From Frigoriglobus tundricola (GTDB lineage Bacteria > Planctomycetota > Planctomycetia > Gemmatales > Gemmataceae): a stretch of DNA of 64,000 nucleotides. A program made the position numbers and the translations under genes. Positions 14,391 through 42,829 of the stretch are shown here, piece by piece. Below the pieces are notes generated by a model, which worked only from the letters and a program-made list of their open reading frames with translations, was not told the DNA's origin and did no database searches. Location: contig NZ_CP053452.2 of assembly GCF_013128195.2 (NCBI RefSeq), positions 7,440,001-7,504,000 on the forward strand, written 5' to 3'. Position 1 is the stretch's first letter, and every line of letters starts with the position of its first letter.

Positions 14391-14512
14391 GCGTGAAGAC
14401 GCAAGGGCCGCGGATGAACGCCTTTTGACGCGGATCAGAAGAGTAGGTTGCGTATCTCTGTTTGATCTGCGTTTCCGGCGTTGATCCGCGGCCCTTACGT
14501 GTTCCGCGCTCA
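14391..14512. repeat. Large imperfect inverted repeat, family C
   Basis: The arms at about 14391-14440 and 14462-14512 are imperfect reverse complements. The best-matching word is AAGGGCCGCGGAT.AACGCC, followed by ACGC.GATCA. The element lies between the UbiA gene and the metallopeptidase gene. It looks like a folded or miniature dispersed element; no open reading frame or target-site duplication was recognised. Confidence 0.7.
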
Positions 14513-14534
14513 ACACCAAACACCCGAAGCCGCC

Positions 14535-16232: not shown

Positions 16233-16250
16233 GCCCGGAGCGTTTCCCGT

Positions 16251-16286
16251 GTAGGCCGCGGCCGAGGCTCCTCGACCGCGACCTAC
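16251..16286. repeat. Hairpin downstream of the metallopeptidase gene
   Basis: The 17-base arms at 16251-16267 and 16270-16286 pair with two G-T wobbles and almost no loop (core GTAGG.CGCGG.CGAGG). It follows the peptidase stop by 18 bases. It may aid termination, although no T-tract follows. Confidence 0.6.
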
Positions 16287-16486
16287 AACCACGACGCGTT
16301 TTGTGTGCCGTACTCGATCGAAAAGTGTGGCGCATTCATCCGCCGTGCGATCGAATTGAACGCGTGTCCAGTTAATTATCACTGTCCAGGTCATAATTCA
16401 CTCCCGTCAGCATGAATCGCTGCTGCTGCGGCCGCGTCGGAGCGGTCGGGGTCGGCACGGTCATTACTCGTTTCGGGAGGAGAGCG

Positions 16487-17203: not shown

Positions 17204-17226
17204 AGATGCAGCGGGCGGATTGCGGA

Positions 17227-17297
17227 CTGTAGCCGGCCTCTGTGAGGCCGGTGCGACGCGATCTCCGGAGCACCGGCCTCACAGAGGCCGGCTACAG
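17227..17297. repeat. Dispersed hairpin repeat, family A copy 2 (perfect)
   Basis: Perfect 28-base arms at 17227-17254 and 17270-17297 enclose a 15-base loop, built on CTGTAGCCGGCCTCTGTGAG. It is the same family as 3014-3086. It lies between the convergent DUF1264 gene and the broken giant gene. Confidence 0.88.
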
Positions 17298-17358
17298 AAG
17301 AGGCAGGCGCATCCGCTGGAACAATCACAAATTCACACGACCGCGTCTGTGACTCCCG

Positions 17359-20300
17359 TCACCCCAACTCGCTCTCACGGAGCCGCGCGGCCAGGTCCCG
17401 GTGGATGCGTCCACGGATGAGGAACTCGTCCCCGTCCAGCCACGCCCGCACCCCGGGGCTGAGCGTGAACTCGTCCGTCACGACGGCGCGGACCACGGTG
17501 TCGATGAGCCGCAGCGGGTGCAGCGTGTAGTAACAGTTCGACGAGCCCTGTACGCTGACGCGGTCGAGGCGCTGGAACAACTCTTCCAGCCGCCCGAGCG
17601 CGAACCCGGCGGTCGCGAAGCCGAGGGCCTCGGCGTAGGCCAGCGCCAGCGCCGTCCGCTTCGGCACGTCGTCCGACGTCGATAAGAACATTGCGTCCCG
17701 GGCCGCGTTCAAGATGCGCTCGCCCGCCTCCGCGTCCCCCGCCACGAACCAGCCCACGGCCAGGCCCACGCGCTCGGCGGTGAGCGCCGCGGCGGCCGGC
17801 TCGCCGCCGTTCGGGTCGATGATCCCGATCAGCGCCTCGGCGTCGGCCGTCAGGCCGAACTTGCGCGCGCGCGGAACGCGCGCGCGCCGTTGCCCCGGCC
17901 GCGGTGAGCAGCGAGCCGGCCGCCGCCCCGCGCGTGAGGTGCCGGAGCAGCCGTTGGGCCGCCCCGGCCGACGCCACCGCGAACGCCAGTTCGATGATCC
18001 GGGCCTGGAACCGGGTCACCCGGTTCGCGCGCTCGGCGTCCGTCCAGCCGCCCGGCACACACCCACGCTTCTGTCCAGTCCAGTGCGGTCGGCGCCCAGC
18101 TCCAGCAGCGGTTCGGTCACGGACGCGTCGAGGTGCGCGGCCACGCCGAGGAGCGCGAGCACCACCCGCGGCACGGTCGCGGTGGTCGGCCCGGCGAGCG
18201 CGCCCGCGAGCAGCGCCCCGGGCCTCCTCGAGCAACTGCGCCGGGTCGGTGCGGGTGCCGAGGACCGCGAGCCGCTCCCCCAACCGGTCGGCGCCCCAGA
18301 ACTCCCGCAGGTCGCGCCCGCGGTAGCGCGCACGGCCCCGACCGGCTGGAGGATGCGGCTGTGCTCGCGGAGCCGGTCGGCCGAGTAGCGGGCGAACTCC
18401 GGGAGCCGCTCCAACCGCTCGTGCAGGTCCGCGGGCAGCCCCGGTTTGGGCGTGTGGCCCTCGTGCGCTTCCTTGATCCGGTGGAGAAACAGGTCGCCCA
18501 GGAAGGCGTGCCCGGCCGGATCGACGCGGACCCCGGTGGCGCGCCCGAGCGCGCCTTGCGCGCCCGGGCCGCCCAGTCCCGCGCTGCGCCCCGTTCGCCC
18601 AGCGCGCCGAGCCCCACGCGAGCATGAACTGCGCGTACGCCGCCGTCGCCTCGCCCTCCCCGCTGAGCCCCGCCCACTCGAGCCCGGCGCCGCCCTCGGC
18701 GTGCCGCCGGACCCACTTCATGATCGGCTCGTGCATGCGGCCGAGCCACTCGCGGGCGGTCTTGAACCGCTCGGCGGTCGCGGTGCCGCGGAACCGCAGG
18801 AACGAGGGCTCGTCCAGGTCCAGCGCGGGGCCGCGCTCGTGTAGCCGGCGGATCAGCCGGTCCCGCCAGCGCGCCAGGCCGAGCGTGTCGCCGTCGCACG
18901 CCCGCGCCAGGGCGAGCCGGGCCAGCCACGCCCCGCGCACCGGCACGTCGTCGAACTGCTGCTCCAGAACCGCCAGCACCCGCGGGAGCGCCGCGACGAA
19001 CTCGGGGGCGGAACGGGGAGGGCGCCGAAGAAGGCCGCGAGCGCGGCGACCACCCGCCCGGTACCGGGCCGCGCGGGCTCGCTCAACCAGCGGTCCAGGT
19101 CCGCGCCGCGGTCGCCCCGCTTCGCCGCCCGGATCTCCGCGGCCGCCCACTGCTCGAACCACGCCTCCGGCGGGGCGGGGCCTCCCAGAGGGCGTTCGTC
19201 CAGCAGACGGCGGCGTCCAGCGACTGGCCGGTCGCGCCGTACACGCCGGCCAGCTCGGCCCACCGGGCCGCCCGGCCGGCCGGGTTTAGGTGCGAGAAGT
19301 CCGCGAGCAAGCGGGTTTCGAGGTCGTGCCGGCGGGCCGCCCAGTCGTGACCGTGGAGCAGGGCGTCCGCGGACGCGAGTTTCCGTTCCACCCGCCCGTC
19401 GTTCTGTGCGGCCACGGGGCGCGGCGGGTGGCGCGGGGGCGGGCGGGTCGGGTCCGGGTGCGGTTCGGCCGCCGCACGCTCGGCCCGTTGTCGCTGGCCG
19501 CGGACCCACCGAACCATCCGGAACACGGACTTCGAGACCCAACTGGAATCGTCCTCCGCCCCCGGCGCCGGCTCGTCCGCGACCGGTGCTTGTTTTTCGG
19601 GTTCCGGATCGGGCTCGAGTTCGATGGAGGTTTCGAGCTGAACGGTGAACCGGCCGAACGGGAACGTTTCTTCCGGCGGCTCATCCGCCACGAGTCGGGC
19701 GGGCCGCGGCACTACGTATTCCAGCCGCTCGGCGAGTGACCGGAACGCCGGCACATCGACCGCGTGGACCGCGATCCCGCGGCCCGCGGGCTCGACCCAC
19801 ACGATCCGCTGCGGGCCGAGAGCGAACTCGCGGACGAGTTCGCGCACCCGGACCACCGGGCGCGCGCGCCGCCCGCGGGCACAAAGAGCGTCGGGACCCG
19901 CGGGTCGGGTTGGAACGCCCGGGCCGGTACGGGCAGCACGGCCGCGCCCGTCGGCCGCGTCCGCCCGGCGGACGACGAGCCGCGTGTCGGGACCGGCTTG
20001 CACCGTCGCCACCTGGAACCGGTGGAGCAGGCGCTCGTCGGCGGTCCGGCAGAACGTCTCGAACGCCCCGTGGTCCGGAGCGGACAGCACCCACAGCGCC
20101 TCGTCCCGCGGGCCGTCGCGCTGCGCGAGTCGGAACCGCACCTCGATCCGCACGCGCGGGTCGGCGGGGGCGCCGGTCGTTCGCTGGAGCGGGACGGGCA
20201 GCTCTTCGAGGCGCGGGGGCGGGACCGGGCCGGGGACACACACCGACGCCCGGTCCGGTCCGCACAACAACACGCTGCCGTCCGGCACGTCCAGGTGGGC

Positions 20301-20820
20301 GGCGAGGGGGTGTTCCCAACCGCGAACGGTCCAAACGCCCTCGGCCTGTTTCTGGTACACCCGGACGTCCGCGCCGGCCTCGTCGATCCACAGGAACACG
20401 GCCGGGGGCGGCGCGTGGGCGGTGACCCACGCGCGGCCGGTGTACGGGTCCGGCAGCAGCCGCACGCCGACCTGCGCCACGCGCCGCCGCACGCGGGCGA
20501 CGAGTGCGGCGAGGTGCCGGTCCGGAACGTCGAACAGCACGAGGCCGTCCGCGGCGGGCTCGGCGCGGCGGAGCGGGAACACCTCGGCCCAGCACCGGAC
20601 GCCGTCCGTCGGGACGCCGGGCGTCCCGAGGGCGAGGACGCCGAGCCGGGCCAGAGCGGCAAAGGCTTCACGGGCCGGCAGCTCGTCCGGTTCGAGCCAG
20701 AGGCGCCCGAGGGCGTCGAACCCGGCCCGCGCCGGGCGCCCGCGCGACCTCCGGCGGCACCAGCCCGCTGACGAGTGCGAGACGCAGGGTGTCCAGGTTC
20801 GGGAAGAACAGCGCCGGCAT
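17359..20820 (-). pseudogene. Frameshifted tandem paralogue of the FtsH-locus giant protein
   Basis: Starting at the ATG at 20820, MPALFFPNLDTLRLALVSGL matches the N-terminus of the intact 1168-residue neighbour. Similarity continues to the end (YTLHPLRLIDTVVRAV, GVRAWLDGDEFLIRGRIHRDL versus RKWLDDDEYLVRRRIHADM). The coding frame must change about eleven times: near 20745, 19945, 19865, 19185, 19020, 18595, 18540, 18320, 18230, 18050 and 17870. Within each segment codon use is normal and no stop interrupts. GC content is extreme. Either the gene is decaying after duplication or this stretch has many sequencing indels; raw reads would decide. If intact it would be ~1140 residues with a Pro/Arg-rich middle linker. 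Confidence 0.75.
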
Positions 20821-20975
20821 GACCGAAGTGTAGTGCGCCGCGGTCGAAAGTGGGCAGAAGATAGTGGGCGGAAAAATCAAACCGGGCACGGCGCAGCGAG
20901 GAAAGGACCCGCGACCGCCGTGCCCAGTTGCTGGTCCCCTGTCCGCTCACGGCCGCACGTCACCGCCCGCCGCGC

Positions 20976-23900
20976 TCACAAGTGGTTCGTGTCCAGGTTC
21001 CGCTTCATGTCGGCGTGGATGCGGCGGCGGACGAGGTACTCGTCGTCGTCGAGCCACTTGCGGCCGGAGGCGCCCAGCGCGGAGTCGTCGCTCACGAGGG
21101 CGAGGATCACGTCCTCCACGAGGTTCAGGTGGAACCGCGAATAGTACTGCGCGGTGGTCCACGTGTTCGTGATCTTGGAGGGGGACATTTTGCGGAACAG
21201 TTCGATCATGCCGGCCAGACAGTTGTCCGGGGACCCGCCCTGGCCGAGCGCGCTGACGTACGCGCGGGCCAGCTCGGTGTAGTCCTTCGGCTGGAGCACC
21301 ATCGCGTTCGCGCCGAGGAGCTCGTTCCGCGCCTCCTGAAGGATCGGCGCGGCCCGGTCGTGGAGGCCGAGGTGCATCCACCCGCCGGCCAGGTTGAGCA
21401 GGGTCTGGAGCACGGCCGCCCACGCGTCGGGCTTGGCCGCGTACTTCTTCTTCAGTTCCGCGGCCGAGGCCCCGCGGAGCACCTCGTTGTGGAGCTTGGT
21501 CAGGAACCGGTCGATCTCGCTCATGAGCCCGAGCTTCTTCAGGTTCCGCAGGCACTGGCGCGCGACCACGTTAATGAGCTTGTACCGCGTGTCTTCGGCC
21601 TTGGAGTGGACCAGAGTGGTGAAATCGTCCACCAGTTTCTTGACGACGTCTTCGCGGTTGAAGTGACCGGCGAGGAACAGCGCGCGCTCGAGCAACTCGC
21701 CCTGCTTCCGGTGCAGGTCGGGCGATTCGGTGGCGGCGCCGGTGCCGCCGCTGAGCGCGGCCGGGACGTGCGTGAGCAGTTCCACCGTGAACGCCTCGTT
21801 CACGCGGGCCGCCAGCGGCAGCCCCTCGTGGAGGACATAAAACTGCACCTCCTTGAGCGGCTTGCCGGTCACGCCCTCTTTGTGCAACTTGCGGATGCGG
21901 TCCGCGAGCTTGTTCGGGTCGCGGATCGCGTGCAGCTCCGCGAGCTCCTTCTTCATCGCGTCGCCGTGCTTGGTCCAGTCGGCGTAGGGGTCGGGCTTCT
22001 CCTGCGGTTCCATGATCCGCGACTGCTCGCGCATCCGGTCCACCACGTACTTCGCGAGCTTGTACGGGTTGTTCACCGGGCCGGAGCCGCCCTTCTTGGC
22101 GATCTCTTCCAGCTTGTCGAGTACCTCGGGGGCCATCTGCCCGGTGTGGGGCTTCCCCGCCAGCACCTGCTCGACGCGGTACCGGAACGCAATGAACAGG
22201 AAGTTGCGGACGACGGCGGCGGTGACCGCCTGGTCGGTCTGCGTGTTGCCGCCGGTGGGGACCGGCCCCTCCATCGCCTTGCGGGCCTCTTCGAGCAGGT
22301 GCTTCGCCTGCGTCGATTCGTCGAGTCGGGCGACCGCGAACGCGAACAGCATGTCCACGAGCGGCTGGTTCGCCTTCAGGTGGTCGTTCTTCTGCGCGGT
22401 CGCGGAGTCGTCGAGCCACTTGCGGACGGCCCCGTGCAGCTCCATCGCCTTGTCGCGCACCACGCGCATGCGCTCGGAGTCCTTCATCCCGAAGAACCGG
22501 AGGAAGCCGGGCAGGTCGCGCTCGGCCTGGAGCCCGTTTTCGAGGAGCCGCTTGAGCAGCCGGTCGCGTACCCGGGCCAGCCCGAGGACGTCGGCCCCGG
22601 AGAGCTGCGCGAGCCGGTAGCCCGCGAGCCAGACGGCCCGCACCGGCAGCGCCGCGTCGTGCGTTTCCAGGTACTTTTGGAGCGCCGGGAGCCGGTGCGT
22701 CAGCCACCCCGGCACCGGCTGTTGCGACGCGAGCCACAGGAACGCCGCCACCACCCGGCGCGACTCCTCCAGCCCGCCGCCGGTGTGGTTCAGGAGCCGG
22801 TCGAACTCGTCGGCGCGGACGGTCTTGTCCGCGTCGGGCAGTTCGGTCCGGGCCCAGGCCGCGAGCCACTGCTGCGGCATCGGGTCGGCGTCCCAGAGGG
22901 CGTCCAGCCAGCACACGGCCGCGTCCACGGGCCGCTTCGCCCCGGAATACGCGGTCGCCAGTTCGGGCCAGAGGGCCTGGCGCTCGGGCGCGTCCAACGG
23001 GCCCTCGAGGGCGACGAACTGGGCCTCCAGTTCCTTGGCCCGGATCTCCCACTCGTTCGGCTTGCGCACCTCTTCGGCCGGCGGGAGGTAGTCCGTCTGT
23101 GCGGACGGTTTCGCGACCGGCTGTTTACCCTTGGCGGTCGGTTTCGTCGGGCCGACGCCCTTGGGCGCCTTCGCGTCGTCGTCCTCCTTACCCTTCGGCT
23201 CCTTGTCGCCCTTGTCCGGCTTGGTCTTCGGGCCGCCGTCCTTGCAGACGAAATGGTCGAAGTCGAACCGCGTCGCCTCGATCCACGCGGCCAGCGGCTG
23301 CTGTTCGGCCTCGATCACGTAATCGACCCAGTCCTCCAGCGACCGGAACGCCGCGTCCGGCACGCTCTCCGGGGTGAACCCGGTCGTGGTCTCGTCGGGG
23401 TAGAGCCACACCACCTGATCGGCGTCGTCCGACAGGAGCTTGCGGACCGCGTCGCGGCGGAGCGTCGGGTGCAGCCGCTTGCCGATCGGCAGGAACAGGT
23501 TCGGCAGCTTCCAGTAGGGCTTGAACGGCAGCGCGTTGTCGAGCGTCAGCACGGGGGCGGTGAGCTTCGACGGGCGGACGCGGAGGACGACGGTGCGCCG
23601 GCCCTGGGCGTCGGTGGCCACGGCGAACATGAGCCGCTGGAGGAGCCGGTCGTCGGAGTCGCGGACCAGAACGTCGAGCTGCTCGACGGCGTTGTCGCGG
23701 AGCACCCACAGTTCGGGGGTGTCGGTGGTGGTGCTGGCCGCGAGCCGGAGCGGCACGGTCATCTTCTTGGGCGCCTTCGCCTCGGTCCAGCCGACCGGCC
23801 CGGCCGGCAGCTTGAACTGCATGATGTCGTACACGTCCTGGAACGGGGCGTCGTCCAGGTACACCCACTCGCGCGGCGCGCGGACGAGGAGCAGCTGCTT

Positions 23901-24482
23901 GTCCGCGACGCGCAACTGTTGGGCGAGCGGGAGCGAGTGCCCGACCTCGACCCACACGCGGGGGGCGCGCTCGAGGTACGCGCGCACGCCGCCGCCGGCG
24001 CCGGCCGCGCCCGTGTCGAGCGCGCGGAGGAGCGTGTAGTACGGCGGGCCGATCACGCGGAGCAGGACCCGCTTGCCCTCGCCGTCGCCGGGCGCCGCGA
24101 ACCACCGGAAGCCCTGCCGGTCGTTGCCCAGCCGGAGCATTTCGGACACGAGCACCGGCAGGTCATCGGCCCGCTCCAGCTCGAACAGAACCGGGGCCTG
24201 GTTCGAGAGCTGGGGCGCGGCGGCGTCGCGCGTGACCGGCAGCAGCTGCGGCCAGCAGGTGACCTCCTGCGGCGCGTCGGAGGCGTGCCGCTTCGAGCCC
24301 TTCACGCCGATCCGGTCGAGGTTCTTGGCTACCGCCTTCGTCAAATTGGCGGTCGGCTCGACGTACACCTTCCCCTGGTCGTCGAAGCTGACGGCCGCGG
24401 GCGCGAGGGCGACCTCGGCGGGAACGATGCCGCTCGTGAGTGCGACGCGGAGGGTGTCGAGGTCGGGGAACAGGAGGATCAT
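20976..24482 (-). CDS. 1168-residue FtsH-locus protein of unknown function
   Basis: No signal peptide or membrane span is visible. The N-terminus MILLFPDLDTLRVALTSGIV is shared with the downstream paralogue and may be a docking module. Residues ~80-430 are beta-rich and repetitive. A Lys/Asp/Glu-Pro linker lies at ~440-500. Residues ~520-1168 are helical and solenoid-like (KELEAQFVALEG, AVCWLDALWDADPMPQQWLAAW, LLKRLLENGLQAERDLPGFLRFFGMK), ending with the conserved KWLDDDEYLVRRRIHADM. The ATG at 24482 follows an ATCCTCCTG-type start context on the coding strand. It is the last intact gene of the operon with the FtsH-like protease. A scaffold, substrate-recognition or effector role is inferred only from size and context. 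Confidence 0.8.
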   Translation of the reverse strand: MILLFPDLDTLRVALTSGIVPAEVALAPAAVSFDDQGKVYVEPTANLTKAVAKNLDRIGVKGSKRHASDAPQEVTCWPQLLPVTRDAAAPQLSNQAPVLFELERADDLPVLVSEMLRLGNDRQGFRWFAAPGDGEGKRVLLRVIGPPYYTLLRALDTGAAGAGGGVRAYLERAPRVWVEVGHSLPLAQQLRVADKQLLLVRAPREWVYLDDAPFQDVYDIMQFKLPAGPVGWTEAKAPKKMTVPLRLAASTTTDTPELWVLRDNAVEQLDVLVRDSDDRLLQRLMFAVATDAQGRRTVVLRVRPSKLTAPVLTLDNALPFKPYWKLPNLFLPIGKRLHPTLRRDAVRKLLSDDADQVVWLYPDETTTGFTPESVPDAAFRSLEDWVDYVIEAEQQPLAAWIEATRFDFDHFVCKDGGPKTKPDKGDKEPKGKEDDDAKAPKGVGPTKPTAKGKQPVAKPSAQTDYLPPAEEVRKPNEWEIRAKELEAQFVALEGPLDAPERQALWPELATAYSGAKRPVDAAVCWLDALWDADPMPQQWLAAWARTELPDADKTVRADEFDRLLNHTGGGLEESRRVVAAFLWLASQQPVPGWLTHRLPALQKYLETHDAALPVRAVWLAGYRLAQLSGADVLGLARVRDRLLKRLLENGLQAERDLPGFLRFFGMKDSERMRVVRDKAMELHGAVRKWLDDSATAQKNDHLKANQPLVDMLFAFAVARLDESTQAKHLLEEARKAMEGPVPTGGNTQTDQAVTAAVVRNFLFIAFRYRVEQVLAGKPHTGQMAPEVLDKLEEIAKKGGSGPVNNPYKLAKYVVDRMREQSRIMEPQEKPDPYADWTKHGDAMKKELAELHAIRDPNKLADRIRKLHKEGVTGKPLKEVQFYVLHEGLPLAARVNEAFTVELLTHVPAALSGGTGAATESPDLHRKQGELLERALFLAGHFNREDVVKKLVDDFTTLVHSKAEDTRYKLINVVARQCLRNLKKLGLMSEIDRFLTKLHNEVLRGASAAELKKKYAAKPDAWAAVLQTLLNLAGGWMHLGLHDRAAPILQEARNELLGANAMVLQPKDYTELARAYVSALGQGGSPDNCLAGMIELFRKMSPSKITNTWTTAQYYSRFHLNLVEDVILALVSDDSALGASGRKWLDDDEYLVRRRIHADMKRNLDTNHL

Positions 24483-24720: not shown

Positions 24721-24978
24721 CTAGCCTTTGTTGCCGGCCTTCTGCTTCGCGGGCTCGTTCGGCTTACCGACCGGTGCGGCCGGTTGCGTTTCGCCCTCGC
24801 GCTCCACGATGATTTCGTCGTTGTCTTCGAGCTTCCTGCCGAGAACCTTCTCGGCGAGTGCCCGGTGCATCTGCTCGTGCTCGATCGGAAGCGCGTCCGG
24901 TTCCGAGTCGAGTTTGATGATGATGTTCTGCTTCCCGGTGCTCGGGTCGCGGCGGAGCATGATGATCATTTCGGCCAT
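24721..24978 (-). CDS. 85-residue FtsH-locus protein of unknown function
   Basis: The small soluble protein begins MAEMIIMLRRDPSTGKQNIIIKL, a beta-hairpin-like start. A helical segment follows (EHEQMHRALAEKVLGRKL), then DNDEIIVERE, and the tail is Pro/Lys/Gln-rich. The N-terminal ~60 residues probably form one compact domain. It starts ~100 bases after the FtsH-like stop, on the same strand. I do not recognise the family. Small partners are common next to AAA ATPases in this phylum, so an adaptor or regulator is a fair guess but unproven. Confidence 0.7.
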   Translation of the reverse strand: MAEMIIMLRRDPSTGKQNIIIKLDSEPDALPIEHEQMHRALAEKVLGRKLEDNDEIIVEREGETQPAAPVGKPNEPAKQKAGNKG

Positions 24979-25080
24979 GTCTTCTCCGGGTTCCGGGTGC
25001 CAAGGGTCCCAAGGTCCAAGTTGGTGCCAAGCGGTCCCACGTTCCCCCGACTCGGAACCTGGAACTCTCGGGACTTGGAA

Positions 25081-27315
25081 TCACTCCCCATCCTTTTTCT
25101 TGGCCGGCTTCTTTTCGGTGCCGTTGGCGCTCGCGGTCTCGGCGGTGGTGCCGGCGCCGCTGCCGAGCTTCACCTCCGGGCCGGGGGCGCCCACGTCCTT
25201 CGGGTACCTCGCCCGCAGCTCGTCGATGATCTCGCGCGTCCGCTCGCCCTCGATGGTTTTCTTCTCCATCAGTTCGTCGCGGATCTTCACCAGGTCCGCT
25301 TTGTGCTTGGCGAGGATCGCCGCGGCCTTCGCCTGGGCCTCGACGATGATGGTGTTCACCTGCCGGTCGATCGCCTCGGCCATCGACCCGGACAGCACCA
25401 CCCGTTTGCCCTCGTGGTCGTGGAACGACCGCAGCGGGGCGGCCAGGTTCGACATGCCGCAGACCTCGACGATCAGCTCGGCCAGTTCGGAGGCGCGGAA
25501 CAGGTCCGAGCCGGGGCTGCCCATGCCGCTCGCGCCGGTGGACACGTCGCCCACGAGCACGCGCTCGGCCTCAATGCCGCCGTAGAGGACGGTGAGGATG
25601 TCGAGCATCTCGCTGCGGCTCATGCCGATCCGCTTCTTCTCGTGCTTGAACTGCGTGAAGAACGGCGCCCACGGCATGTCGCTCTGGATCGTCACCTTTT
25701 CGGGCGGCGCGTGGTGCGGGCAGAAGATGGACACGAGGAAGTGCCCGGCCTCGTGCGTCGCCACGACGGGCAGGTCCTTCTCGTGCAGCTCCACCTTCTC
25801 GTCGAACTCGGTGAGCGCCTTCTCGATCAGCTTCGGGTCGGTCGCGCCCTTGACGTTCTCGCGCATCCGGAGCCGGGCGACGGCCCGGCAGATGGCGTTC
25901 AGGTGGTCGCCGCTGAACGCGGTGCCGGTCGGCGTCATGTACCGGTTGCCGGTGCGGTGGGTCGCGTACTCCATCGCCGCGTCGGTGAACTGGAGCTTCA
26001 TCTTCTTGTTGTAGATCTCGAAGATGGCGCGGCGGTCGTCGTCGTCCGGGTACGGGATGTGGATGTGGAACTCGAACCGCCCGGGGCGGAGCAGGGCGGG
26101 GTCGAGCGACTCCACGAAGTTGGTGGTGCCCACGACGAACACGAGTTCGTCCTTGTGGAACCCGTCCATTTCGGTGAGCAACTGGTTCACCATCGAGTGC
26201 TCGACGCCACTGCCCGTGTACGTGCCGCGGGCGGTCGCGAACGAGTCGAGTTCGTCGAACACGATGATGGACGGCGCCGACTGGCGGGCCTTGTGGAAGA
26301 TCTGCCGCAAATTCTCTTCCGATTCGCCGACCCACTTGCTCTTCAGTTCCGGGCCGCTCACGATGGTGATGGCGGCGCCGATGCTGGCGGCGATGGCCTT
26401 CGCGAAGTACGTCTTCCCGGTGCCGGGCGGCCCCCAGAAGATCATGCCGCGCGGGATCAGCTCTTCCAGCCGCGCGACCTCTTCCGCGTCGGTCGCGCGG
26501 TCGCGCTTCGAGAGCGTGTCGAGGATCTCGCTCTTGAGCTTCGCCTTCACCTTCGTGTAGCCGCCGATGTCCTTGTCCAGATCGACGGCCGGGATCTCCA
26601 TGTGCCCGGTCAGCGTGGCCTGCCGCACCTGGGCGTACGCGCGCTTCGGGTCGGCGGGGTAGTCCTCGCCCTCGAGGGTGGAGAGGAGCCGGCGCAGGCG
26701 CACGGCGTTCACGCCGGAGACGTACTTGTAGAGCTGCCAGGGGGAGAAGTCGCGGCCGAACTTGCGGCTCTCCTTCTGCGTGATGAGGTGGCGCAACCGG
26801 TTCCGCGAGGTGCCCAGGATGCTGAGCCAGTGCGGGAACAGGTTCTCGATCACTTTGGGCAGCGAGAACGACGGGTCCTTGAACCCGAGCCACACGAGTT
26901 CGGGGTTCTCGTACAGCAGCGGGATGACCTCGCGCGCCTCGCTGGTCAGTCCGCCCTGGCTGGTGGTGAGCAGGTCGAGGTGGGGCAGCACGACGACGCG
27001 GCGCTCGGTGGCCCCGCGGACCGCGTCGCGGAGCTGCGAGATCATCGTGCCGATGAGCCCCTGCGGGATCGCACCCTGTTGGGGGTCACGCTGCCGCCCG
27101 TCCAGGTAGATGCACTGCAACTTGGCCTGGCGGAGCCGGTCGCGCACGTTCATGAACAGGTAGGGCGCGAGTTCCTTGTCGCACTCGATGAGCGTGGGGA
27201 GCCCGCGGACGAGCTTGCTGGCCACCTCCGCGAGTTCCTGGCTGTACGCCGCCTCCACCGCCTCCACGGGGGTCAGGCTGGTGGGCAGGTCTTTTTCGGT
27301 GATGGTGATGCTCAT
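25081..27315 (-). CDS. Soluble FtsH-like AAA+ zinc metalloprotease with a degenerate N-terminal P-loop-like region
   Basis: The 744-residue product has an FtsH-type AAA+ domain at ~245-480: Walker A GPPGTGKT (295-302), Walker B IVFDELDS (351-358), second region of homology LDPALLRPGRFE (404-415). An M41 peptidase domain follows with HEAGH at 521-525 and Asp604 as the likely third zinc ligand. FtsH proper has two N-terminal membrane helices; none is visible here. Instead ~240 residues precede the ATPase and contain VVVLPHLDLL, reminiscent of a worn-down P-loop domain. The C-terminus is a coiled coil plus a Lys/Ala-rich tail. It should unfold and degrade proteins in the cytosol. The ATG at 27315 was chosen; upstream in-frame codons look non-coding. 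Confidence 0.9.
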   Translation of the reverse strand: MSITITEKDLPTSLTPVEAVEAAYSQELAEVASKLVRGLPTLIECDKELAPYLFMNVRDRLRQAKLQCIYLDGRQRDPQQGAIPQGLIGTMISQLRDAVRGATERRVVVLPHLDLLTTSQGGLTSEAREVIPLLYENPELVWLGFKDPSFSLPKVIENLFPHWLSILGTSRNRLRHLITQKESRKFGRDFSPWQLYKYVSGVNAVRLRRLLSTLEGEDYPADPKRAYAQVRQATLTGHMEIPAVDLDKDIGGYTKVKAKLKSEILDTLSKRDRATDAEEVARLEELIPRGMIFWGPPGTGKTYFAKAIAASIGAAITIVSGPELKSKWVGESEENLRQIFHKARQSAPSIIVFDELDSFATARGTYTGSGVEHSMVNQLLTEMDGFHKDELVFVVGTTNFVESLDPALLRPGRFEFHIHIPYPDDDDRRAIFEIYNKKMKLQFTDAAMEYATHRTGNRYMTPTGTAFSGDHLNAICRAVARLRMRENVKGATDPKLIEKALTEFDEKVELHEKDLPVVATHEAGHFLVSIFCPHHAPPEKVTIQSDMPWAPFFTQFKHEKKRIGMSRSEMLDILTVLYGGIEAERVLVGDVSTGASGMGSPGSDLFRASELAELIVEVCGMSNLAAPLRSFHDHEGKRVVLSGSMAEAIDRQVNTIIVEAQAKAAAILAKHKADLVKIRDELMEKKTIEGERTREIIDELRARYPKDVGAPGPEVKLGSGAGTTAETASANGTEKKPAKKKDGE

Positions 27316-27426
27316 AGCAGTGTGCAGTGGACCGTGTGCAGTGGACAGTAAAGACACAAAGACGACGAGAGCGAGCGCGGGGGGCAGCGCCGGCCGCCGA
27401 CTGCCCGTTCCTCACGACCAACCCGA

Positions 27427-27999
27427 TTAGACTTCCACCTTGATGGTGAGTGAGCCGCTCTCGGCGTCCTCGCTGATCTCCTTCACGGTGCCCATTTGCT
27501 GGGCCTTCTGTTTGAGGGCGTCGCGGGTGACCTTGTTGACGACCTCGGAGATCTCCGGTTGCAGGTCGCTGAGGTGCTTCTCCAGCGCCTCGGTCGCCTT
27601 GCCCTGGAGACGGGACTGCTCCTGCTCGAACTTCTTGTCGAGGTCCTGCTTGAGCTGGTCCTTGACCTTCTCGCGGAGGCTCTTCTCGTTCGGGCCGACG
27701 TCGTTGAAGCCGGTGGCCTCGCGCTTCACTTCCTGGTTGATCGTCTCCTCGGTCTCGGCCTTCACGGACACCTCGCCGCTGCACGGGTCGATCTTGACGG
27801 TGAGGTCGCCGTCCTTGCGCTCCATCGTGCCGTCCTCTTGCTCTTCGAAGCCGCGCTTCTTCAGCTCTTCTTTGAGTAGCGTGGCCATGTCCTCGGGGGA
27901 GAGGATTTCGAGGATCTCGAGCTGCGTGCAGATCTCGTCCCCGGCCTTCAGGTGGCGGGATTCCGACTCTTTCACGGTGATGCGGTACGCGCGGCTCAT
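27427..27999 (-). CDS. 190-residue FtsH-locus protein of unknown function
   Basis: The soluble acidic protein starts MSRAYRITVKESESRHLKAGDEICTQLEILEIL. The middle is charged (KELKKRGFEEQEDGTMERKDG, beta strands TVKIDPCSGEVSVKAET). A coiled-coil helix follows (LREKVKDQLKQDLDKKFEQEQ), and the end is a beta strand (SGSLTIKVEV). I cannot assign a family. The mix of a small alpha/beta domain and a long helix suggests an adaptor. It lies 111 bases upstream of the FtsH-like gene and 65 bases downstream of the 393-residue gene, on the same strand. Confidence 0.75.
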   Translation of the reverse strand: MSRAYRITVKESESRHLKAGDEICTQLEILEILSPEDMATLLKEELKKRGFEEQEDGTMERKDGDLTVKIDPCSGEVSVKAETEETINQEVKREATGFNDVGPNEKSLREKVKDQLKQDLDKKFEQEQSRLQGKATEALEKHLSDLQPEISEVVNKVTRDALKQKAQQMGTVKEISEDAESGSLTIKVEV

Positions 28000-28064
28000 G
28001 AGTCGTCTCCAGTGAATGGTGGTCGGTTCAGGAATTCGGACGCCAGGGCGCCGGTTTCTCGTGG

Positions 28065-29246
28065 TCAGCCGGGGCTGTCGGCGGGGTTCTCGGTCGTTGT
28101 CGGTCCGCCGCCCGCTGCCGCCGGTCCGGGAGTGGCAGGACCGCGGAGCGGTTCGAGCATCTCCACCGCGGCGCGGGCGCGGGCGGCGACCCGGTCGCCC
28201 TGGGTCGTTTCCCACTCCGCCTTCCACATCTGGGCGGCCTGATAGTCCTCGTCGAAGTACCCGACGGACCGTGCCCGCGCTTGCCACTCTTCGAGTGTTT
28301 CCATCTGCCGCGGCAGCGCCAGCGCGGACCGCTGGGTCTCCAGGCGGTCGGCCAAACGCGGCGGGCCGCTGCCCTGGAGGCCGCCGGTCCAGAACACCGG
28401 CGTCATATCGGACTGGAGAACGGCCGCGTTGGTTCGCAGCACGAAGCGGGCCAGGTCGGTCCGGCGCGCCGCGTCGGCGGCTTGGAGGAAGGCCCTCAGT
28501 GCCGCGTGTTCGGCTTGTCCTTGCTGCCGCATCTTCTTCCAGTCGCCGATCTGACCCTTGGCGCGTTCGGACCGGGTCCACCTGAGCGTGAGGTGCGTCT
28601 GAAGGCACTCGAGTAGCACGGCGCGCTGCCCGGTGAACACCGGGGCGAAGTCCGGCGGTTGCGGCTTGGTGCTGTCCGGTTCGGCGACGTCCCCGGGGTT
28701 GGTGAGCCAGCAGAACGGGTTCCGGGTGAACGCGTCCTTGCGCCGCAGCGCCGCAAGCACATCGGGGTCCGAGCGCATGGCGTCGAACGCGAGGCAGAAG
28801 AACAACTCGTCGGCCGGGGTGAGCGCCTTGGGGGCGGCGTCCCACGCCTGTTTCGTTTCCTGTACCTTCTCCGCGGTCAGCCACAGCAGGAAGTCGAGGA
28901 CCGGACGCGAGAAGTGGAGCGCCCGTTCGTCGAGCGGGATGCGGTCCCAGACGCGACCGGCCACGGGCAGGTTCGCGCGCAAGAACTTGTCGTTCCGCCA
29001 GCCACCGGACCGCGTCAGGAACAGTACCGACGCTTTGGAGAGGGTGTCCTGCACGAGGTCCACGGCGCCGCCGCTGATGCACTCCGGCCGGCTGACGGCC
29101 GTGCGGACCAGTTGCAGCCCCTGGTCGGCGGGGAAGTGCCCCATGAGGAAGCGCAGGATGCGGAGCAGGTTGAACTCGAACTTCGACACCTGCCGCGGCC
29201 CGTCCGGTTCCGGTGGTCGAGTCGGTGGGACGGCGGTGCGCGTCAT
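28065..29246 (-). CDS. 393-residue FtsH-locus helical protein of unknown function
   Basis: The product is soluble and mostly alpha-helical, with many Trp and Phe (KFEFNLLRILRFLMGHFPADQG, FCLAFDAMRSDPDVLAALRRKD, NPFCWLTNP, WQARARSVGYFDEDYQAAQMWKAEW). The Pro-rich N-terminus and the Pro/Ala/Gly-rich C-terminus look disordered. No signal peptide, catalytic motif or known domain is recognised. The ATG at 29246 overlaps the stop of the radical-SAM gene (ATGA), indicating translational coupling and a shared complex or pathway. Confidence 0.8.
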   Translation of the reverse strand: MTRTAVPPTRPPEPDGPRQVSKFEFNLLRILRFLMGHFPADQGLQLVRTAVSRPECISGGAVDLVQDTLSKASVLFLTRSGGWRNDKFLRANLPVAGRVWDRIPLDERALHFSRPVLDFLLWLTAEKVQETKQAWDAAPKALTPADELFFCLAFDAMRSDPDVLAALRRKDAFTRNPFCWLTNPGDVAEPDSTKPQPPDFAPVFTGQRAVLLECLQTHLTLRWTRSERAKGQIGDWKKMRQQGQAEHAALRAFLQAADAARRTDLARFVLRTNAAVLQSDMTPVFWTGGLQGSGPPRLADRLETQRSALALPRQMETLEEWQARARSVGYFDEDYQAAQMWKAEWETTQGDRVAARARAAVEMLEPLRGPATPGPAAAGGGPTTTENPADSPG

Positions 29247-30073
29247 TGGGTATCGGTCCCCGGGGTTCGGTTCGCGTCGGTGCATGGAGCGGCCGTGAAG
29301 CCCGGCTGTGCGGGCGCCAGGTCGCGATCCACGGTGGCCGCGGCCGTGAAGCCCGGCTGTGCGGGCGCCAGGTCGCGATCCACGGTGGCCGCGGCCGTGA
29401 AGCCCGGCTGTGCGGGCGCCGGGTCGCGATCCACCGTGGGGAGGGGGACGGATTTCTTCCGCTTCCAGCCCTTCCACAAGCCTACTGCATCCGCGGCCGG
29501 AAAGCCATTCACACTGATCCCGTCGCGGTCGACGCGGATCTCCAGGGTGTTCTTCTGCCGCCACTGCTGGTCGTAGGAGTAGCGCGGGGTCAGGAAGTGG
29601 ATGCGCTGGTTCCGCGAGCCGATCCACCGGCGCTCGGTGTCCGGCTGTTCGCGAATGTACGGGCCGTCCACGAGGATGTCCGTCGCGGCGATCAACGCGG
29701 CAACTTCGGGCTCCGGCCGCGACTGTAACTCCTCAATCGTGAAGCCGCTGAACACCATGACCGACAGACCCCGGAGCCTCGACGCTTCCGCGAGTGCGAG
29801 TGCCGCCGGGGTATGCGCGAACGGCTCGCCGCCGAGGAGCGTGATCCCTTCGATCCCGCTTTCTCCCTGCGTTCGCGCCACCCACTCTACCATTTCACCG
29901 AGCGTCTTGGTTTGACCGCCCTTGAAGGGCAGAAACTCCGGATTGCAGCATCCCGGGCAGCGGAGCGGACAGCCCTGGAACCAAAGTGCGAACCGCTTGC
30001 CCGGCCCCTCGGCTTCGGTGCAGGGCACCACCTGTGCAATCTGCATCGTCAGGTCTTCAACCGTGTTCGACAT
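29243..30073 (-). CDS. Radical-SAM activase (NrdG/PflA-like) with a repeated C-terminal tail
   Basis: The 276-residue product has the [4Fe-4S] motif C35-x3-C39-x2-C42, the SAM-binding GGEP (81-84) and the short core of NrdG/PflA-type glycyl-radical activases (ALWFQGC, TLLGGEPFAH, DGPYIREQPD, WIGSRNQRI). No glycyl-radical enzyme gene is seen, so the substrate may be a protein of this locus. After residue ~210 a tail carries three copies of a 17-residue unit, TVDRDLAPAQPGFTAAA. ATG 30073 has a GAGG site upstream; an internal ATG at 30046 is an alternative. It is the first gene of the operon with the FtsH-like protease. Confidence 0.85.
   Translation of the reverse strand: MSNTVEDLTMQIAQVVPCTEAEGPGKRFALWFQGCPLRCPGCCNPEFLPFKGGQTKTLGEMVEWVARTQGESGIEGITLLGGEPFAHTPAALALAEASRLRGLSVMVFSGFTIEELQSRPEPEVAALIAATDILVDGPYIREQPDTERRWIGSRNQRIHFLTPRYSYDQQWRQKNTLEIRVDRDGISVNGFPAADAVGLWKGWKRKKSVPLPTVDRDPAPAQPGFTAAATVDRDLAPAQPGFTAAATVDRDLAPAQPGFTAAPCTDANRTPGTDTQ
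29290..29439. repeat. Tandem 51-base repeat inside the radical-SAM gene
   Basis: There are three consecutive copies: 29290-29340, 29341-29391 and 29392-29439, the last shortened and slightly diverged. The first two are nearly identical. The unit is a multiple of three and encodes a 17-residue block, so copy number can change without breaking the frame. Confidence 0.9.
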
Positions 30074-30152
30074 CAAGCCTCGGTGGTCCGCACTTCAGAG
30101 TATTCGGCAAGTTCAGCGTTTCGGGCATCGGTTCGCGCGCGACTGGTGCCGC

Positions 30153-30179
30153 ATTATACCCGCCGGGAGACGCGAACAA
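30153..30179 (-). promoter_or_regulatory. Candidate promoter of the radical-SAM/FtsH operon
   Basis: On the minus strand a perfect TATAAT lies at 30158-30153, with TTGTTC at 30179-30174 and 15 bases between. It is ~80 bases upstream of the ATG at 30073 and overlaps the rtcA stop codon. The spacer is short for sigma-70, so this is tentative. Confidence 0.4.
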
Positions 30180-31200
30180 CCCCCGATTTGCCGTCGGTGT
30201 GTTCGATCTGAATGGTACGATCCACGAACTTCCGCACAGTTTCAATGTTGGTGGTGAGGTGTCGCGTGATTTCGGAGGTGCGGTACTCACTGGCGTCGTC
30301 GCTGAAGCCGAGCGGGAGCAGTAGCTGGTCCGCCGAGTGCGGATCGACCGGGCACCGGGCGTCCCGGAAGGCGATGGCCTCATCGGCCGCGTCGTCGGCG
30401 ACCGACTCGGAAGGTTTCCCGCGTTCGCCGAGTCCGAAGAACAGCGGCGGCACCGGCGCCTGACGGAAGATCACCGCCGCGACGCTGCCCGGATTCGCCG
30501 CCGCCCACTCTTCCAACGGAATGTGCGATTCCACGTCTTCCGATTTGAGCCGCACGGCGAGGCGCCGCGCTTGCCTCCGGCCGACCGATTCCGGCAGCCC
30601 GGCGTACGCACTGAACCCGCCGGCGGTGGTGAGTTCCGGGCACGTCAGGAGCTGAATGCCGTTGATCCGCGCGCAGGGGTGGACCACAGCGCGAATTTCG
30701 CCCCCGCCGCGCGGGTAAAAGCCGGGGCGCGTCATCTCGACGTCCACGCGAATCCCCAGCCGCGCCAGGTATGCGCTCCAGGTCGTTTCGAGGAAGTGGA
30801 AGCACGGCGCGTGGGTGTTGTGCGTGCCGCCGGAAATAGTGATTTCGCTCGGTTGGTCGCCCCGCAGTGCGAGCGGCAGATAAACGGTGTGCAGCACGAG
30901 CGCCGTCGCCCCCGCGGTGCCGATGCTGAAACTGTACGTTCCGCTCCGGAGCTGTCCGGGCTCGAAATACAGCACAGATGACCCGACCGACCCGCCCTTG
31001 TACTGCCCGCCGCAGATGGCGCCCGCGGCGCGGACACACATGAGGTGCTGCGGTTGCAACCCCGGCTTACTGCGGTTCGCGCGGATGTTCACCAGCTTGA
31101 ACGGACGCTGCGTGAGGATGGCGAGGGCCAGGGCCGACCGGAGGATCTGCCCGCCGCCTTCACCTTCGGACCCGTCGATTTCGATCATGCCGTCGCTCAT
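30154..31200 (-). CDS. rtcA: RNA 3'-terminal phosphate cyclase
   Basis: The 348-residue product matches RtcA. The N-terminal IEIDGSEGEGGGQILRSALALA is the family signature, followed by GGTHNTHAPCFHFLETT and PRGGGEI. His288 in VDPHSADQLLLP is the residue that becomes adenylylated. RtcA converts an RNA 3'-phosphate to a 2',3'-cyclic phosphate using ATP. The usual RtcB ligase and RtcR regulator are not in the window. The ATG at 31200 gives the normal N-terminus, and a TACAAT -10 word lies ~50 bases upstream. It reads toward the FtsH operon, so read-through into it is possible. Confidence 0.95.
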   Translation of the reverse strand: MSDGMIEIDGSEGEGGGQILRSALALAILTQRPFKLVNIRANRSKPGLQPQHLMCVRAAGAICGGQYKGGSVGSSVLYFEPGQLRSGTYSFSIGTAGATALVLHTVYLPLALRGDQPSEITISGGTHNTHAPCFHFLETTWSAYLARLGIRVDVEMTRPGFYPRGGGEIRAVVHPCARINGIQLLTCPELTTAGGFSAYAGLPESVGRRQARRLAVRLKSEDVESHIPLEEWAAANPGSVAAVIFRQAPVPPLFFGLGERGKPSESVADDAADEAIAFRDARCPVDPHSADQLLLPLGFSDDASEYRTSEITRHLTTNIETVRKFVDRTIQIEHTDGKSGVVRVSRRV

Positions 31201-31252
31201 AGCATCACGGACACGGGTGGCGCGGCAGCGGTTCAGCACGAACGCAGAGCGA

Positions 31253-31282: not shown

Positions 31283-31308
31283 GAATTACGGTCACGGAGG
31301 TCGCCCGA

Positions 31309-31749: not shown

Positions 31750-31751
31750 TT

Positions 31752-40716: not shown

Positions 40717-41864
40717 TCATCGTGAACCCGGAGCGGCCGGCGGCAGGTACCACGGCGGGCGGTCGTCGGGGCAGACGGCGATGAACGGCTTGCCGGTCGA
40801 GTGCCCCAGCGCGGCCGCGAACGGGGTGTGTGCCCGACTGCTCACGACCAGCCTCGCGCCGCGCGCGAGGTGCCGGGTGAAGGTGCGGGCCGCCGGCGCC
40901 TCGACCGCGTCGGTGCCGCGGACGGACGCCAGGGGTGCGAGGGCCGCGCGCAGGTCCTCTTCGGACGCGGCCGTGGCGGCGACCGCGTCGGAGCCGGGGA
41001 CGACGACCGTCACCGCACTATCGAACGCGCGCCCACGCCACGTGACGGCGATCGTGGCGGCGAGGCTCAGGGCCGCCTCGAGCCGCGCGCGATCGGTTGC
41101 GTCGGGCGCCGCCGGCAGCCACGCCTCGACCACCAGCACGAGTTCCGGCGAGGGCGCGGTGTCGTACTCGCGAACCATCGGCTCCCCGCGCGCGGTGGTC
41201 CGCCAGTGGATGTCCCGGATCGCGTCGCCGGGCCGGTACGGGCGCACCCGCGCCCTCGGCCTGATCGGTACTCACCCGGCGCAGCACGCGCGCGCGCGGT
41301 CGTCCCCCGCGCGCTCCGGAGCACCCACCGCCGGAGGCCGTCCGCGTCGGCCGTACCGAGGCACGGGAGGACGACGATCTCGCCGCCCGCTTCGCCCGGG
41401 CGCTCGCACGCGATGAACCCGAACGGGAAGCCGGACGTGAGGGTCACGGGGCCGGCGTACCGCCCCCGTGCCGGGAACGTGCGCCACGCGGTACACGGGA
41501 GCGCGTGGCCGGCCGGGAGCCGGTACACCAGAAAGGAGTTCGCTCCCGGCCCCGCCCGGTCCTCGGCGGTGAGGGTGATCGGGTACCTGGCGCCGTTGGT
41601 GACCGTCAGGCCGCACTCGACGCGCTCGCCCGCGAAGACGGGCGGGAGCGCGATCCGGCGCGCCGTCGCCCGGCGCACCGCGAACCACGCCAGGAGCCCG
41701 TTCAGGACCAGCAGGCAGGCCATCGCGTAGACGACGATCAGCACCAGGTTGATGCTCTTGTACCAGGCGAGCGCCCCGATGAGCACCACCGCCGCGAGCC
41801 AACTCACCCCGGAGGGAGTGAACCGCAGGCGCCGGCCGGCCGGGTCGCCGTCGGCGCGTTTCAT
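40717..41864 (-). pseudogene. DUF58 protein gene with one frame change
   Basis: The 5' part (41864 down to ~41250) encodes a membrane hairpin and the beta domain, ending in APGEYRS. The 3' part (~41250 to 40717) continues with VRPYRPGDAIRDIHWRTTARGEPMVREYD, the DUF58 core, and SPELVLVVEAW. Both parts have normal codon use, and adding one base near 41250 joins them to ~380 residues. The site is a run of G and C. It may be a sequencing indel or a recent loss. The ATG at 41864 overlaps the MoxR stop (ATGA). If intact it would be the MoxR partner of this operon. Confidence 0.7.
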
Positions 41865-42829
41865 GCCGGCACCTTCAGCTTCGAGAGCACGTCGCGCACG
41901 ATCGGCCCGGCGTCGGGGTGCCCGCCGGCCGCCCAGCTCCGGGTCACGAGCCGGTGCGCGAGGACCGGTTCGGCCAGCGCCTTCACGTCGTCCGGGACCG
42001 CGTAGTCGCGCCCGGCCGTCACCGCGTACGCCTGCACGGCGCGGTACAGCGCGAGCGCGGCGCGGGTGCTGGCGCCGAGGGCGAGTTCCGCGTGCTTGCG
42101 GGTCTCCCCGATCAGGTCGAGGACGTACTCCGCGATGGCCGGGTCCACGCGGACCGTTCGGACGTGCTGCTGGAGCGCGATCACGTCGGCCGGCTGGAGG
42201 ACCGGTTCGAGCTTCTCGACCGGTTCGCCGGCGCGGTGCTGGGTGAGGATGGCCCGCTCGGCCTCGCGGCCCGGGTAGCCGACCTTCACGCGGAGCAGGA
42301 ACCGGTCGAGCTGGCTCTCCGGGAGCGGATAGGTGCCCTCGAACTCGTGCGGGTTCTGCGTGGCAACAACGAGGAACGGCGGCCCGAGCGGGCGCGTGGT
42401 TCCGTCCACCGTCACCTGGCGCTCCTGCATCGCCTCCAGCAGCGCGGACTGCGTGCGGGGGGTGGCGCGGTTGATCTCGTCGGCCAGGACGATCTCCGCG
42501 AACACCGGGCCGGGGTGGAACGTGAACTCGCCCGTCTGGGCCTTGTAAATGGTCACGCCGATGAGGTCGGCGGGCAGCAGGTCGGGGGTGAACTGGATCC
42601 GATTGAACTTGCAGGCGAGGCTGCGGGCCAGGGCCTTCGCGAGCAGGGTCTTGCCGACGCCCGGCACGTCGTCGAGGAGCAGGTGCCCGTCCGCGAGCAG
42701 CGCGACGGCGGCCATCCGGATCACGTCGGGCTTACCGAGGAACACCCGCCCGACGTTCGCTTGGAGCGCCGCGAGCAGCGGCGCCAGGTCGCGCGGGGAT
42801 CGGGCGGGGATCGAACCGTCAACAGCCAT
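41861..42829 (-). CDS. MoxR family AAA+ ATPase (second locus)
   Basis: The 322-residue product has Walker A PGVGKT (56-61), Walker B VLADEINRATPRTQSALLEAMQERQV (from 114), and sensor-1 region VVATQNPHEFEGTYPLPESQLDRF. It is first in an operon with DUF58 and a TgpA-like transglutaminase gene, the commonest arrangement for this ATPase. It differs from the other MoxR of this window (GVGKT rather than GVAKT) and is a separate paralogue. The ATG at 42829 lies downstream of a TATACT -10-like word at 42867-42862 (minus strand). Confidence 0.93.
   Translation of the reverse strand: MAVDGSIPARSPRDLAPLLAALQANVGRVFLGKPDVIRMAAVALLADGHLLLDDVPGVGKTLLAKALARSLACKFNRIQFTPDLLPADLIGVTIYKAQTGEFTFHPGPVFAEIVLADEINRATPRTQSALLEAMQERQVTVDGTTRPLGPPFLVVATQNPHEFEGTYPLPESQLDRFLLRVKVGYPGREAERAILTQHRAGEPVEKLEPVLQPADVIALQQHVRTVRVDPAIAEYVLDLIGETRKHAELALGASTRAALALYRAVQAYAVTAGRDYAVPDDVKALAEPVLAHRLVTRSWAAGGHPDAGPIVRDVLSKLKVPA

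What the first reader, a model, noticed from the sequence alone, without database searches (positions are those of the whole stretch)
17359..20820. Tandem paralogue with about eleven frame changes but no internal nonsense codons
The intact giant gene at 20976-24482 and this copy match along their length, yet the copy switches frame about eleven times in 3.5 kb. Within each piece coding is clean and GC-rich. The two readings are rapid decay after duplication, or sequencing indels in very GC-rich DNA. Because the other frame problems (40717-41864, 35885-36477) also lie in G/C runs or are single-base, error is a real possibility.
Basis: seen in the sequence. Interest (0 to 1): 0.6.

Follow-up and report, generated by a model that had tools for sequence, protein, structure and literature searches.

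The report
False gene breaks from GC-rich sequencing errors
A large planctomycete gene looks shattered into about thirteen out-of-frame pieces, but the breaks are almost certainly sequencing or assembly errors that hit the GC-richest parts of this whole genome, so the gene is probably intact and ordinary.

Summary
The gene at 20820-17359 (minus strand) aligns full length to its intact orthologues only if the reading frame changes 12-13 times, with no in-frame stop. It is not a recent duplicate but an old (~30% identical) second fvmX7 paralogue, intact in 13 of 18 same-genus relatives searched and next to its partner in 10 of those.

The breaks are best explained as indel errors in the assembly. 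A homology-free frame scan of 20 other stretches of this genome found frameshift-like breaks at 19 per 27.0 kb of coding DNA where local GC is at least 0.74, against 4 per 100.1 kb in three relatives (17.6-fold). Below 0.72 GC the rates are equal. The single-copy SMC and PEPCK genes are "broken" in the same way although their pieces are 54-87% identical to relatives. The fvmX7 copy keeps 229 of 236 family-invariant residues. The lack of nonsense codons is weak evidence by itself.

Not shown: the reads themselves. Real decay, a mutator and programmed frameshifting are much less likely. Low interest, except as a warning about this assembly.

The parts
17359..20820 (-). fvmX7-family gene, second paralogue ('X7b'), read in 13-14 pieces in the deposited sequence
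   Evidence: full-length match to 13 intact orthologues; PF20005 E=2.9e-50 in the genome search and 7.5e-50 for piece 19179-20735
17703..19384 (.). run of local GC >= 0.74 (600-bp window) holding ten of the 13 breaks
19849..20719 (.). run of local GC >= 0.74 holding two breaks (near 19948 and 19865); one more break lies just outside at about 20735
20976..24482 (-). intact paralogue 'X7a' (P0001, 1168 aa): N-terminal fvmX7 domain and helical C-terminal half
   Evidence: (PF20005, E=1.6e-129)
24721..25080 (-). fvmX3-analog domain protein
   Evidence: PF20002 E=6.3e-33
25081..27315 (-). FtsH-like AAA+ / M41 peptidase
   Evidence: AAA 9.7e-43, Peptidase_M41 1.1e-27; FtsH_fam E=1.2e-76, below that model's cut-off
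27427..27999 (-). fvmX5 domain protein
   Evidence: PF20003 E=1.2e-86
28065..29207 (-). fvmX6 domain protein
   Evidence: PF20004 E=1e-174
29243..30076 (-). radical SAM protein, NrdG/PFL-activase-like
   Evidence: NCBIfam matches all below their cut-offs
30154..31245 (-). RNA 3'-terminal phosphate cyclase
   Evidence: above NCBIfam cut-off; membership in the operon not tested
40735..41870 (-). DUF58 gene with a frame break near 41269 at local GC 0.77, same artefact class
   Evidence: 184-aa open frame against 399-509 aa in 11 of 12 same-genus relatives searched

Best explanation
The frame changes are base-calling or assembly indels, not mutations. The organism (a Gemmataceae-type planctomycete, judged from its named relatives) carries an intact second fvmX7 gene. 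The deposited assembly has uncorrected single-base-scale length errors where local GC exceeds about 72-74%, and this gene (GC 0.76, with stretches to 0.79) is one of the GC-richest in the window, so it collected about thirteen of them. Shown: the breaks' dependence on GC, their spread over the genome, their rarity in relatives at equal GC, and the residue-level conservation of the broken genes examined. Inferred: the technical cause, most likely long-read consensus errors in short G/C runs and GC repeats that short reads could not correct because their coverage collapses in extreme-GC DNA. The gene itself is probably a working accessory subunit of an FtsH-type 'ternary system'-like cluster: an N-terminal fvmX7 domain and a helical C-terminal half (seen in a modest-confidence model of the paralogue).
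For: (1) Genome-wide, GC-thresholded: in 20 evenly spaced 20-kb stretches of the same genome outside the window, frameshift-like events number 31 in 328.5 kb coding, against 6 in 318.5 (G002), 6 in 349.9 (G014) and 7 in 324.6 kb (G013). At GC >= 0.74 they are 19 in 27.0 kb against 1/36.1, 3/52.2 and 0/11.8 kb; at 0.72-0.74, 7 in 40 against 0/33, 1/71 and 0/14 kb; at GC < 0.72, 5 in 262 kb against 5/249, 2/226 and 7/299 kb. Pooled rate ratios are 17.6 (p=5.9e-10) at >= 0.74 and 1.1 (p=1) below 0.72; simulated indels are found and kept at 0.81-0.93 at high GC, 0.50-0.81 at 0.72-0.74 and 0.62-0.78 below 0.72. (2) Conserved single-copy genes are 'broken' the same way: SMC aligns to four relatives in 4 blocks in 3 frames, each 54-84% identical, its hinge in a 508-aa frame against 1159-1283 aa in 13 of 16 relatives with a hit. 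PEPCK is split in two with 81-87% identity to three relatives on both sides and is whole in 5 of 5 relatives that have it. (3) X7b keeps 229 of 236 residues invariant in 13 orthologues; the intact genes score 93.9-100% in the same leave-one-out test. (4) 10 of 13 breaks lie within 8 nt of a G/C run of 4 or more or a GC repeat of 6 or more nt, against 24% of positions (p=1e-4); GC around breaks 0.803 against 0.759 (permutation p=0.005). (5) In the window, 8 of 8 homology-free breaks without a nearby stop (cost 8) fall inside or within 20 nt of runs of GC >= 0.74. (6) Published precedent: short-read depth falls in GC-rich regions, which matters for polishing (PMC11261834, passages); long-read errors pseudogenise genes (PMC12007338, abstract).
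Against: No reads or second assembly could be examined. One break (near 20735, local GC 0.738) is just outside the GC >= 0.74 runs. One frame break in the window (36125) is in a GC 0.627 region and needs another cause. Among the flagged events elsewhere, at least one (L064, outer-membrane efflux protein then HlyD) may be a true gene boundary. Of the ten broken chains of which pieces were put to Pfam, only SMC and PEPCK gave the same protein family unambiguously on both sides; the CarboxypepD_reg chain was suggestive, and the rest were uninformative or, for L074, tested with one piece only. The GC cut-off used for the rate ratio was chosen after seeing the table. The sequencing method of this genome is not known from any call.
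Confidence: 0.95

Rival explanations
1. Real pseudogene: after becoming dispensable the second fvmX7 copy gathered about thirteen indels very recently, before substitutions could add stops.
For: Frame changes are present in the sequence with no in-frame stop; with 40 substitutions the chance of no stop would still be 0.29-0.40, so the lack of stops does not exclude it.
Against: 229 of 236 invariant residues kept; 13 of 13 intact relatives show 0 frame changes; the same kind of break hits unlinked conserved genes genome-wide, in excess only above a GC threshold.
Confidence: 0.03
2. The strain is a mutator that really accumulates indels in G/C runs and GC repeats genome-wide.
For: Breaks in X7b lie preferentially at G/C runs and GC repeats, and breaks are genome-wide.
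Against: The best MutS match lies in a 1027-aa frame and MutL in a 1001-aa frame, without stops inside the match. No excess of breaks in the 262 kb below GC 0.72, a threshold not expected of a repair defect (inference). Single-copy SMC would carry at least three frame changes.
Confidence: 0.015
3. Programmed or tolerated translational frameshifting joins the pieces.
For: Each piece is clean coding sequence.
Against: No orthologue examined needs any frame change (13 of 13); thirteen obligatory shifts in one mRNA have no precedent known to me (recalled).
Confidence: 0.005

Closest known systems
Gene-fragmenting indel errors ('false pseudogenes') in long-read bacterial assemblies, e.g. Lorv & McConkey 2025, PMC12007338 (abstract and outline seen)
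   Same: Conserved genes cut by length errors; breaks stand out on comparison with relatives
   Different: Here the excess of errors is confined to extreme-GC stretches, so most of the genome looks clean
Short-read coverage loss in GC-rich DNA limiting polishing (PMC11261834, passages seen; PMC3639258, abstract and outline seen)
   Same: Predicts uncorrected errors in the GC-richest regions
   Different: The technology used for this genome is unknown here; the link is inferred
FtsH-containing MoxR-vWA ternary systems (PMC7159879; section 21 and passages seen)
   Same: Locus carries fvmX3-analog, fvmX5, fvmX6, two fvmX7 proteins, an FtsH-like protein and a radical SAM protein
   Different: No MoxR or vWA gene was found among the ten proteins scanned at 13443-33435; the FtsH-like protein has an M41 peptidase domain

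Membership tests
GC-dependent sequencing/assembly indel artefact | Frame breaks spread over the genome, not confined to one gene | tested here: met
   31 events in 16 of 20 stretches outside the window
GC-dependent sequencing/assembly indel artefact | Break rate depends on local GC and exceeds that of relatives at equal GC | tested here: met
   17.6-fold at GC>=0.74, 1.1-fold at GC<0.72
GC-dependent sequencing/assembly indel artefact | Hits conserved single-copy genes whose residues are otherwise preserved | tested here: met
   SMC, PEPCK
GC-dependent sequencing/assembly indel artefact | Breaks absent from raw reads or an independent assembly | not testable with these tools
   no reads or second assembly of this strain were available
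Genuine pseudogene | Loss of selective constraint on the remaining sequence | tested here: not met
   229 of 236 invariant residues kept, GC3 0.927; a very young pseudogene would also pass
Genuine pseudogene | Disruption specific to the gene or locus | tested here: not met
   same kind of break genome-wide
Programmed frameshifting | Frame change conserved in orthologues | tested here: not met
   0 frame changes in 13 of 13
fvmX7 (Pfam PF20005) | Match above the curated cut-off | tested here: met
   173 bits for X7b, 436.2 bits for X7a, cut-off 24
FtsH ternary system | FtsH-type AAA+ component with two AAA+ domains, the first inactive | tested here: inconclusive
   one AAA match at residues 291-422 plus M41; region 1-290 not resolved
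FtsH ternary system | MoxR and vWA genes in the cluster | tested here: inconclusive
   none among the ten proteins scanned from 13443-33435; a MoxR-type gene lies at 41861-42820 beside a DUF58 gene; a divergent vWA could be missed

The most novel reading that the evidence does not exclude
The indels are real: this strain has a GC-tract-restricted indel mutation process that is breaking hundreds of its GC-richest genes, core genes included, in a very short time.
Probability: 0.015. Interest if true: 0.8.

Novelty: not a real feature. Interest (0 to 1): 0.08.

Why it matters
Only as a caution. In this assembly, 'pseudogenes' and short hypothetical proteins in stretches above about 72-74% GC should not be believed without reads, and gene-loss or completeness statements drawn from it are affected. 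Extrapolating 7.0 events per 10 kb of coding DNA at GC >= 0.74 to the whole genome suggests several hundred false breaks (inference). The homology-free GC-binned frame scan is a cheap way to spot such assemblies without reads.

Tried and rejected
Rejected: recent duplication followed by decay (paralogues about 30% identical; both kept in relatives). Rejected as decisive: the lack of nonsense codons, since it is expected for few substitutions. A first HMM setting with a frameshift cost of 14 was too insensitive: it found 1 break in the window and 4, 0, 2 and 0 events in G000, G002, G014 and G013, so costs 6, 8 and 10 were run. At cost 6 false calls rise (54 against 21, 11 and 21 in the same order); conclusions rest on costs 8 and 10, which agree. 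GC-binned results at cost 10, GC >= 0.74: 15 in 26.8 kb against 0/35.9, 2/52.1 and 0/11.8 kb. The binning threshold of 0.74 was read off the table, not set beforehand.

Dropped rows: of 18 same-genus genomes, 13 were used for the X7b profile. G006, G007, G011, G016 and G018 were left out because their second match is shorter or in fragments; they are assemblies of 590-930 contigs. Frame transitions with an old-frame stop near the junction were set aside as possible gene overlaps; this also discards some true breaks (one of the X7b breaks, 18073). Of 25 broken chains outside the window, pieces of ten were put to Pfam, for L061 and L072 two of three pieces and for L074 one of three. For SMC four and for PEPCK three relatives' proteins were aligned. 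NCBIfam on P0001 gave nothing.

Structure: the AlphaFold model of X7a has mean pLDDT 60.7 and is better only in about the first 75 residues and the helical C-terminal half. Its best PDB matches are importin-beta-like helical-repeat proteins at Z 11.7 and lower, below the level (about 13) at which helical repeats mean more than a common arrangement. Literature: a search requiring GC-rich, indel errors, frameshift, pseudogenes, nanopore and polishing together found 0 papers. The contig lengths (9,832,702 and, by subtraction, 24,691 bases) recall Frigoriglobus tundricola PL17, but this is from memory. PMC10817699 (passages) gave the reference to its description, which is not held, and no call names the genome.

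Full report
What was checked. The window lies at 7,440,001-7,504,000 of the main contig of a 9.86-Mb genome. The intact gene 24482-20976 encodes P0001, 1168 aa, whose residues 2-391 match Pfam PF20005, 'FtsH ternary system domain X7' (E=1.6e-129). A search of 59 genomes, the own one included, found it in 33, and in many of those a second, adjacent or separate, paralogue about 30% identical. In the own genome PF20005 has two matches, this gene and the finding.

The observation. I fetched the second paralogue (X7b) from 13 same-genus relatives, each a single stop-to-stop frame of 1147-1300 aa. A frame-aware alignment of the finding to their profile runs from window 20841 to 17365, covers columns 1-1151 of 1152, and needs 12-14 frame changes depending on the penalty, with no in-frame stop. 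The same program gives 0 frame changes for each of the 13 relatives against a profile without itself, and no meaningful match for the opposite strand or a shuffle (scores 42 and 41 against 2950). A codon-usage HMM without homology recovers ten of the places at its laxest setting.

Not a recent duplicate. X7a and X7b are 30-41% identical by block within this genome, and X7b is 61-64% identical to its seven nearest orthologues. In 10 of the 13 relatives the two genes stand in tandem; in G014 they lie about 2 Mb apart and in G005 and G009 on different contigs. 'Rapid decay after duplication' therefore has the wrong starting point.

No sign of relaxed constraint. Read along its frames, X7b keeps 229 of 236 residues that are invariant in the other 13 (97.0%); the intact genes score 93.9-100% in the same test. 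GC by codon position is 0.80, 0.55 and 0.93, a healthy high-GC coding pattern. The absence of stops is weak support: only 2.3-3.1% of random substitutions in this gene create one, so even 40 substitutions would leave no stop with probability 0.29-0.40. These tests show the gene was under selection until very recently, but cannot by themselves tell a very young pseudogene from an error.

The deciding test. If the breaks are errors, they should appear wherever the DNA is equally GC-rich, in any gene. I took 20 evenly spaced 20-kb stretches of this genome, none overlapping the window, and 20 from each of three relatives with long contigs, and counted same-strand frame changes without a stop of the old frame nearby. 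At a frameshift cost of 8 this genome has 31 in 328.5 kb coding against 6 in 318.5 (G002), 6 in 349.9 (G014) and 7 in 324.6 kb (G013); at cost 10, 23 against 2, 5 and 3. Split by local GC (cost 8), this genome has 19 in 27.0 kb at GC 0.74 or more, where the relatives have 1 in 36.1, 3 in 52.2 and 0 in 11.8 kb. At 0.72-0.74 it has 7 in 40 kb against 0/33, 1/71 and 0/14. Below 0.72 it has 5 in 262 kb, and they have 5/249, 2/226 and 7/299 kb. Pooled rate ratios are 17.6 (p=5.9e-10) at 0.74 or more and 1.1 (p=1) below 0.72. Simulated single-base changes in the two GC-richer relatives are found, and kept by the filter, in 13 of 16 and 25 of 27 cases at GC 0.74 or more, at 0.50-0.81 between 0.72 and 0.74, and at 0.62-0.78 below 0.72, so low sensitivity cannot make the low-GC part look clean. 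In the window, 8 of 8 breaks without a nearby stop (cost 8) fall in, or within 20 nt of, runs of GC 0.74 or more; none was called in the neighbouring X7a (GC 0.70).

Conserved genes are hit. One affected gene is SMC, single copy by its hinge domain. Four relatives' SMC proteins align to it in four blocks in three frames at 54-84% identity; its hinge lies in a 508-aa frame where 13 of 16 relatives with a hit have 1159-1283 aa, the other three having 639-819 aa. Another is GTP-type PEPCK, cut between profile positions 381 and 383 of 612, with 81-87% identity to three relatives on both sides, and in one piece in all 5 relatives that have it of 19 searched. In the window, the DUF58 gene near 41269 has a 184-aa frame against 399-509 aa in 11 of 12 same-genus relatives. 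It is not credible that a living cell has just lost SMC, PEPCK and many other genes together, selected by GC content. A mismatch-repair mutator is not suggested: the best MutS and the MutL match lie in frames of 1027 and 1001 aa without stops inside.

Mechanism. Breaks in X7b sit preferentially at G/C runs of four or more or GC repeats (10 of 13 within 8 nt against 24% of positions, p=1e-4), and the surrounding 50 bases are richer in GC than the gene average (0.803 against 0.759, p=0.005). The sharp GC threshold fits a consensus from error-prone reads corrected by short reads whose depth collapses in extreme-GC DNA. That short-read depth falls in GC-rich regions, and that this matters for polishing, is stated in PMC11261834 (passages); low coverage under strong GC bias is in the abstract of PMC3639258; pseudogenisation by long-read errors is in the abstract of PMC12007338. 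Which platform was used for this genome I could not establish; this last step is inference.

What the gene is. The cluster from X7b upstream reads X7b, X7a, fvmX3-analog, FtsH-like AAA+/M41 protein, fvmX5, fvmX6, radical SAM, then an RNA 3'-phosphate cyclase. By their Pfam names these X-domains belong to the FtsH class of MoxR-vWA ternary systems, predicted conflict systems with an FtsH-type ATPase, helical proteins found nowhere else and, in one subtype, a radical SAM enzyme (PMC7159879, section 21). No MoxR or vWA gene was seen among the ten proteins scanned at 13443-33435, so membership of the whole cluster is left open. A model of X7a has mean pLDDT 60.7, poor in most of its N-terminal half, with a helical C-terminal half, compatible with a scaffold or adaptor role (inference).

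Verdict. The frame changes are real in the file but very probably not in the cell. Confidence 0.95 for assembly error; what remains is mostly very recent real decay.

Noticed in passing
window 35888-36381 (-), break near 36125: Nucleotidyltransferase-like gene split at an A5 run beside a TGA, local GC 0.627; best-matching relatives have 198-220 aa frames. It does not belong to the GC-rich class and may be a true frameshift or a different kind of error.
   Followed up: partly
window 40735-41870 (-): DUF58 gene broken near 41269 at local GC 0.77, beside a MoxR-type AAA gene and a transglutaminase-domain gene; same artefact class.
   Followed up: yes
L067:6707-10458 and L073:8604-10440 (own genome, outside the window): Single-copy SMC and GTP-PEPCK genes appear broken in this assembly.
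   Followed up: yes
   Followed up: no
window 17359-31245: FtsH-ternary-like cluster with two fvmX7 paralogues, fvmX3-analog, X5, X6, FtsH-like peptidase and radical SAM, but no MoxR/vWA found nearby; the tandem fvmX7 pair is kept in 10 of 13 relatives examined.
   Followed up: partly
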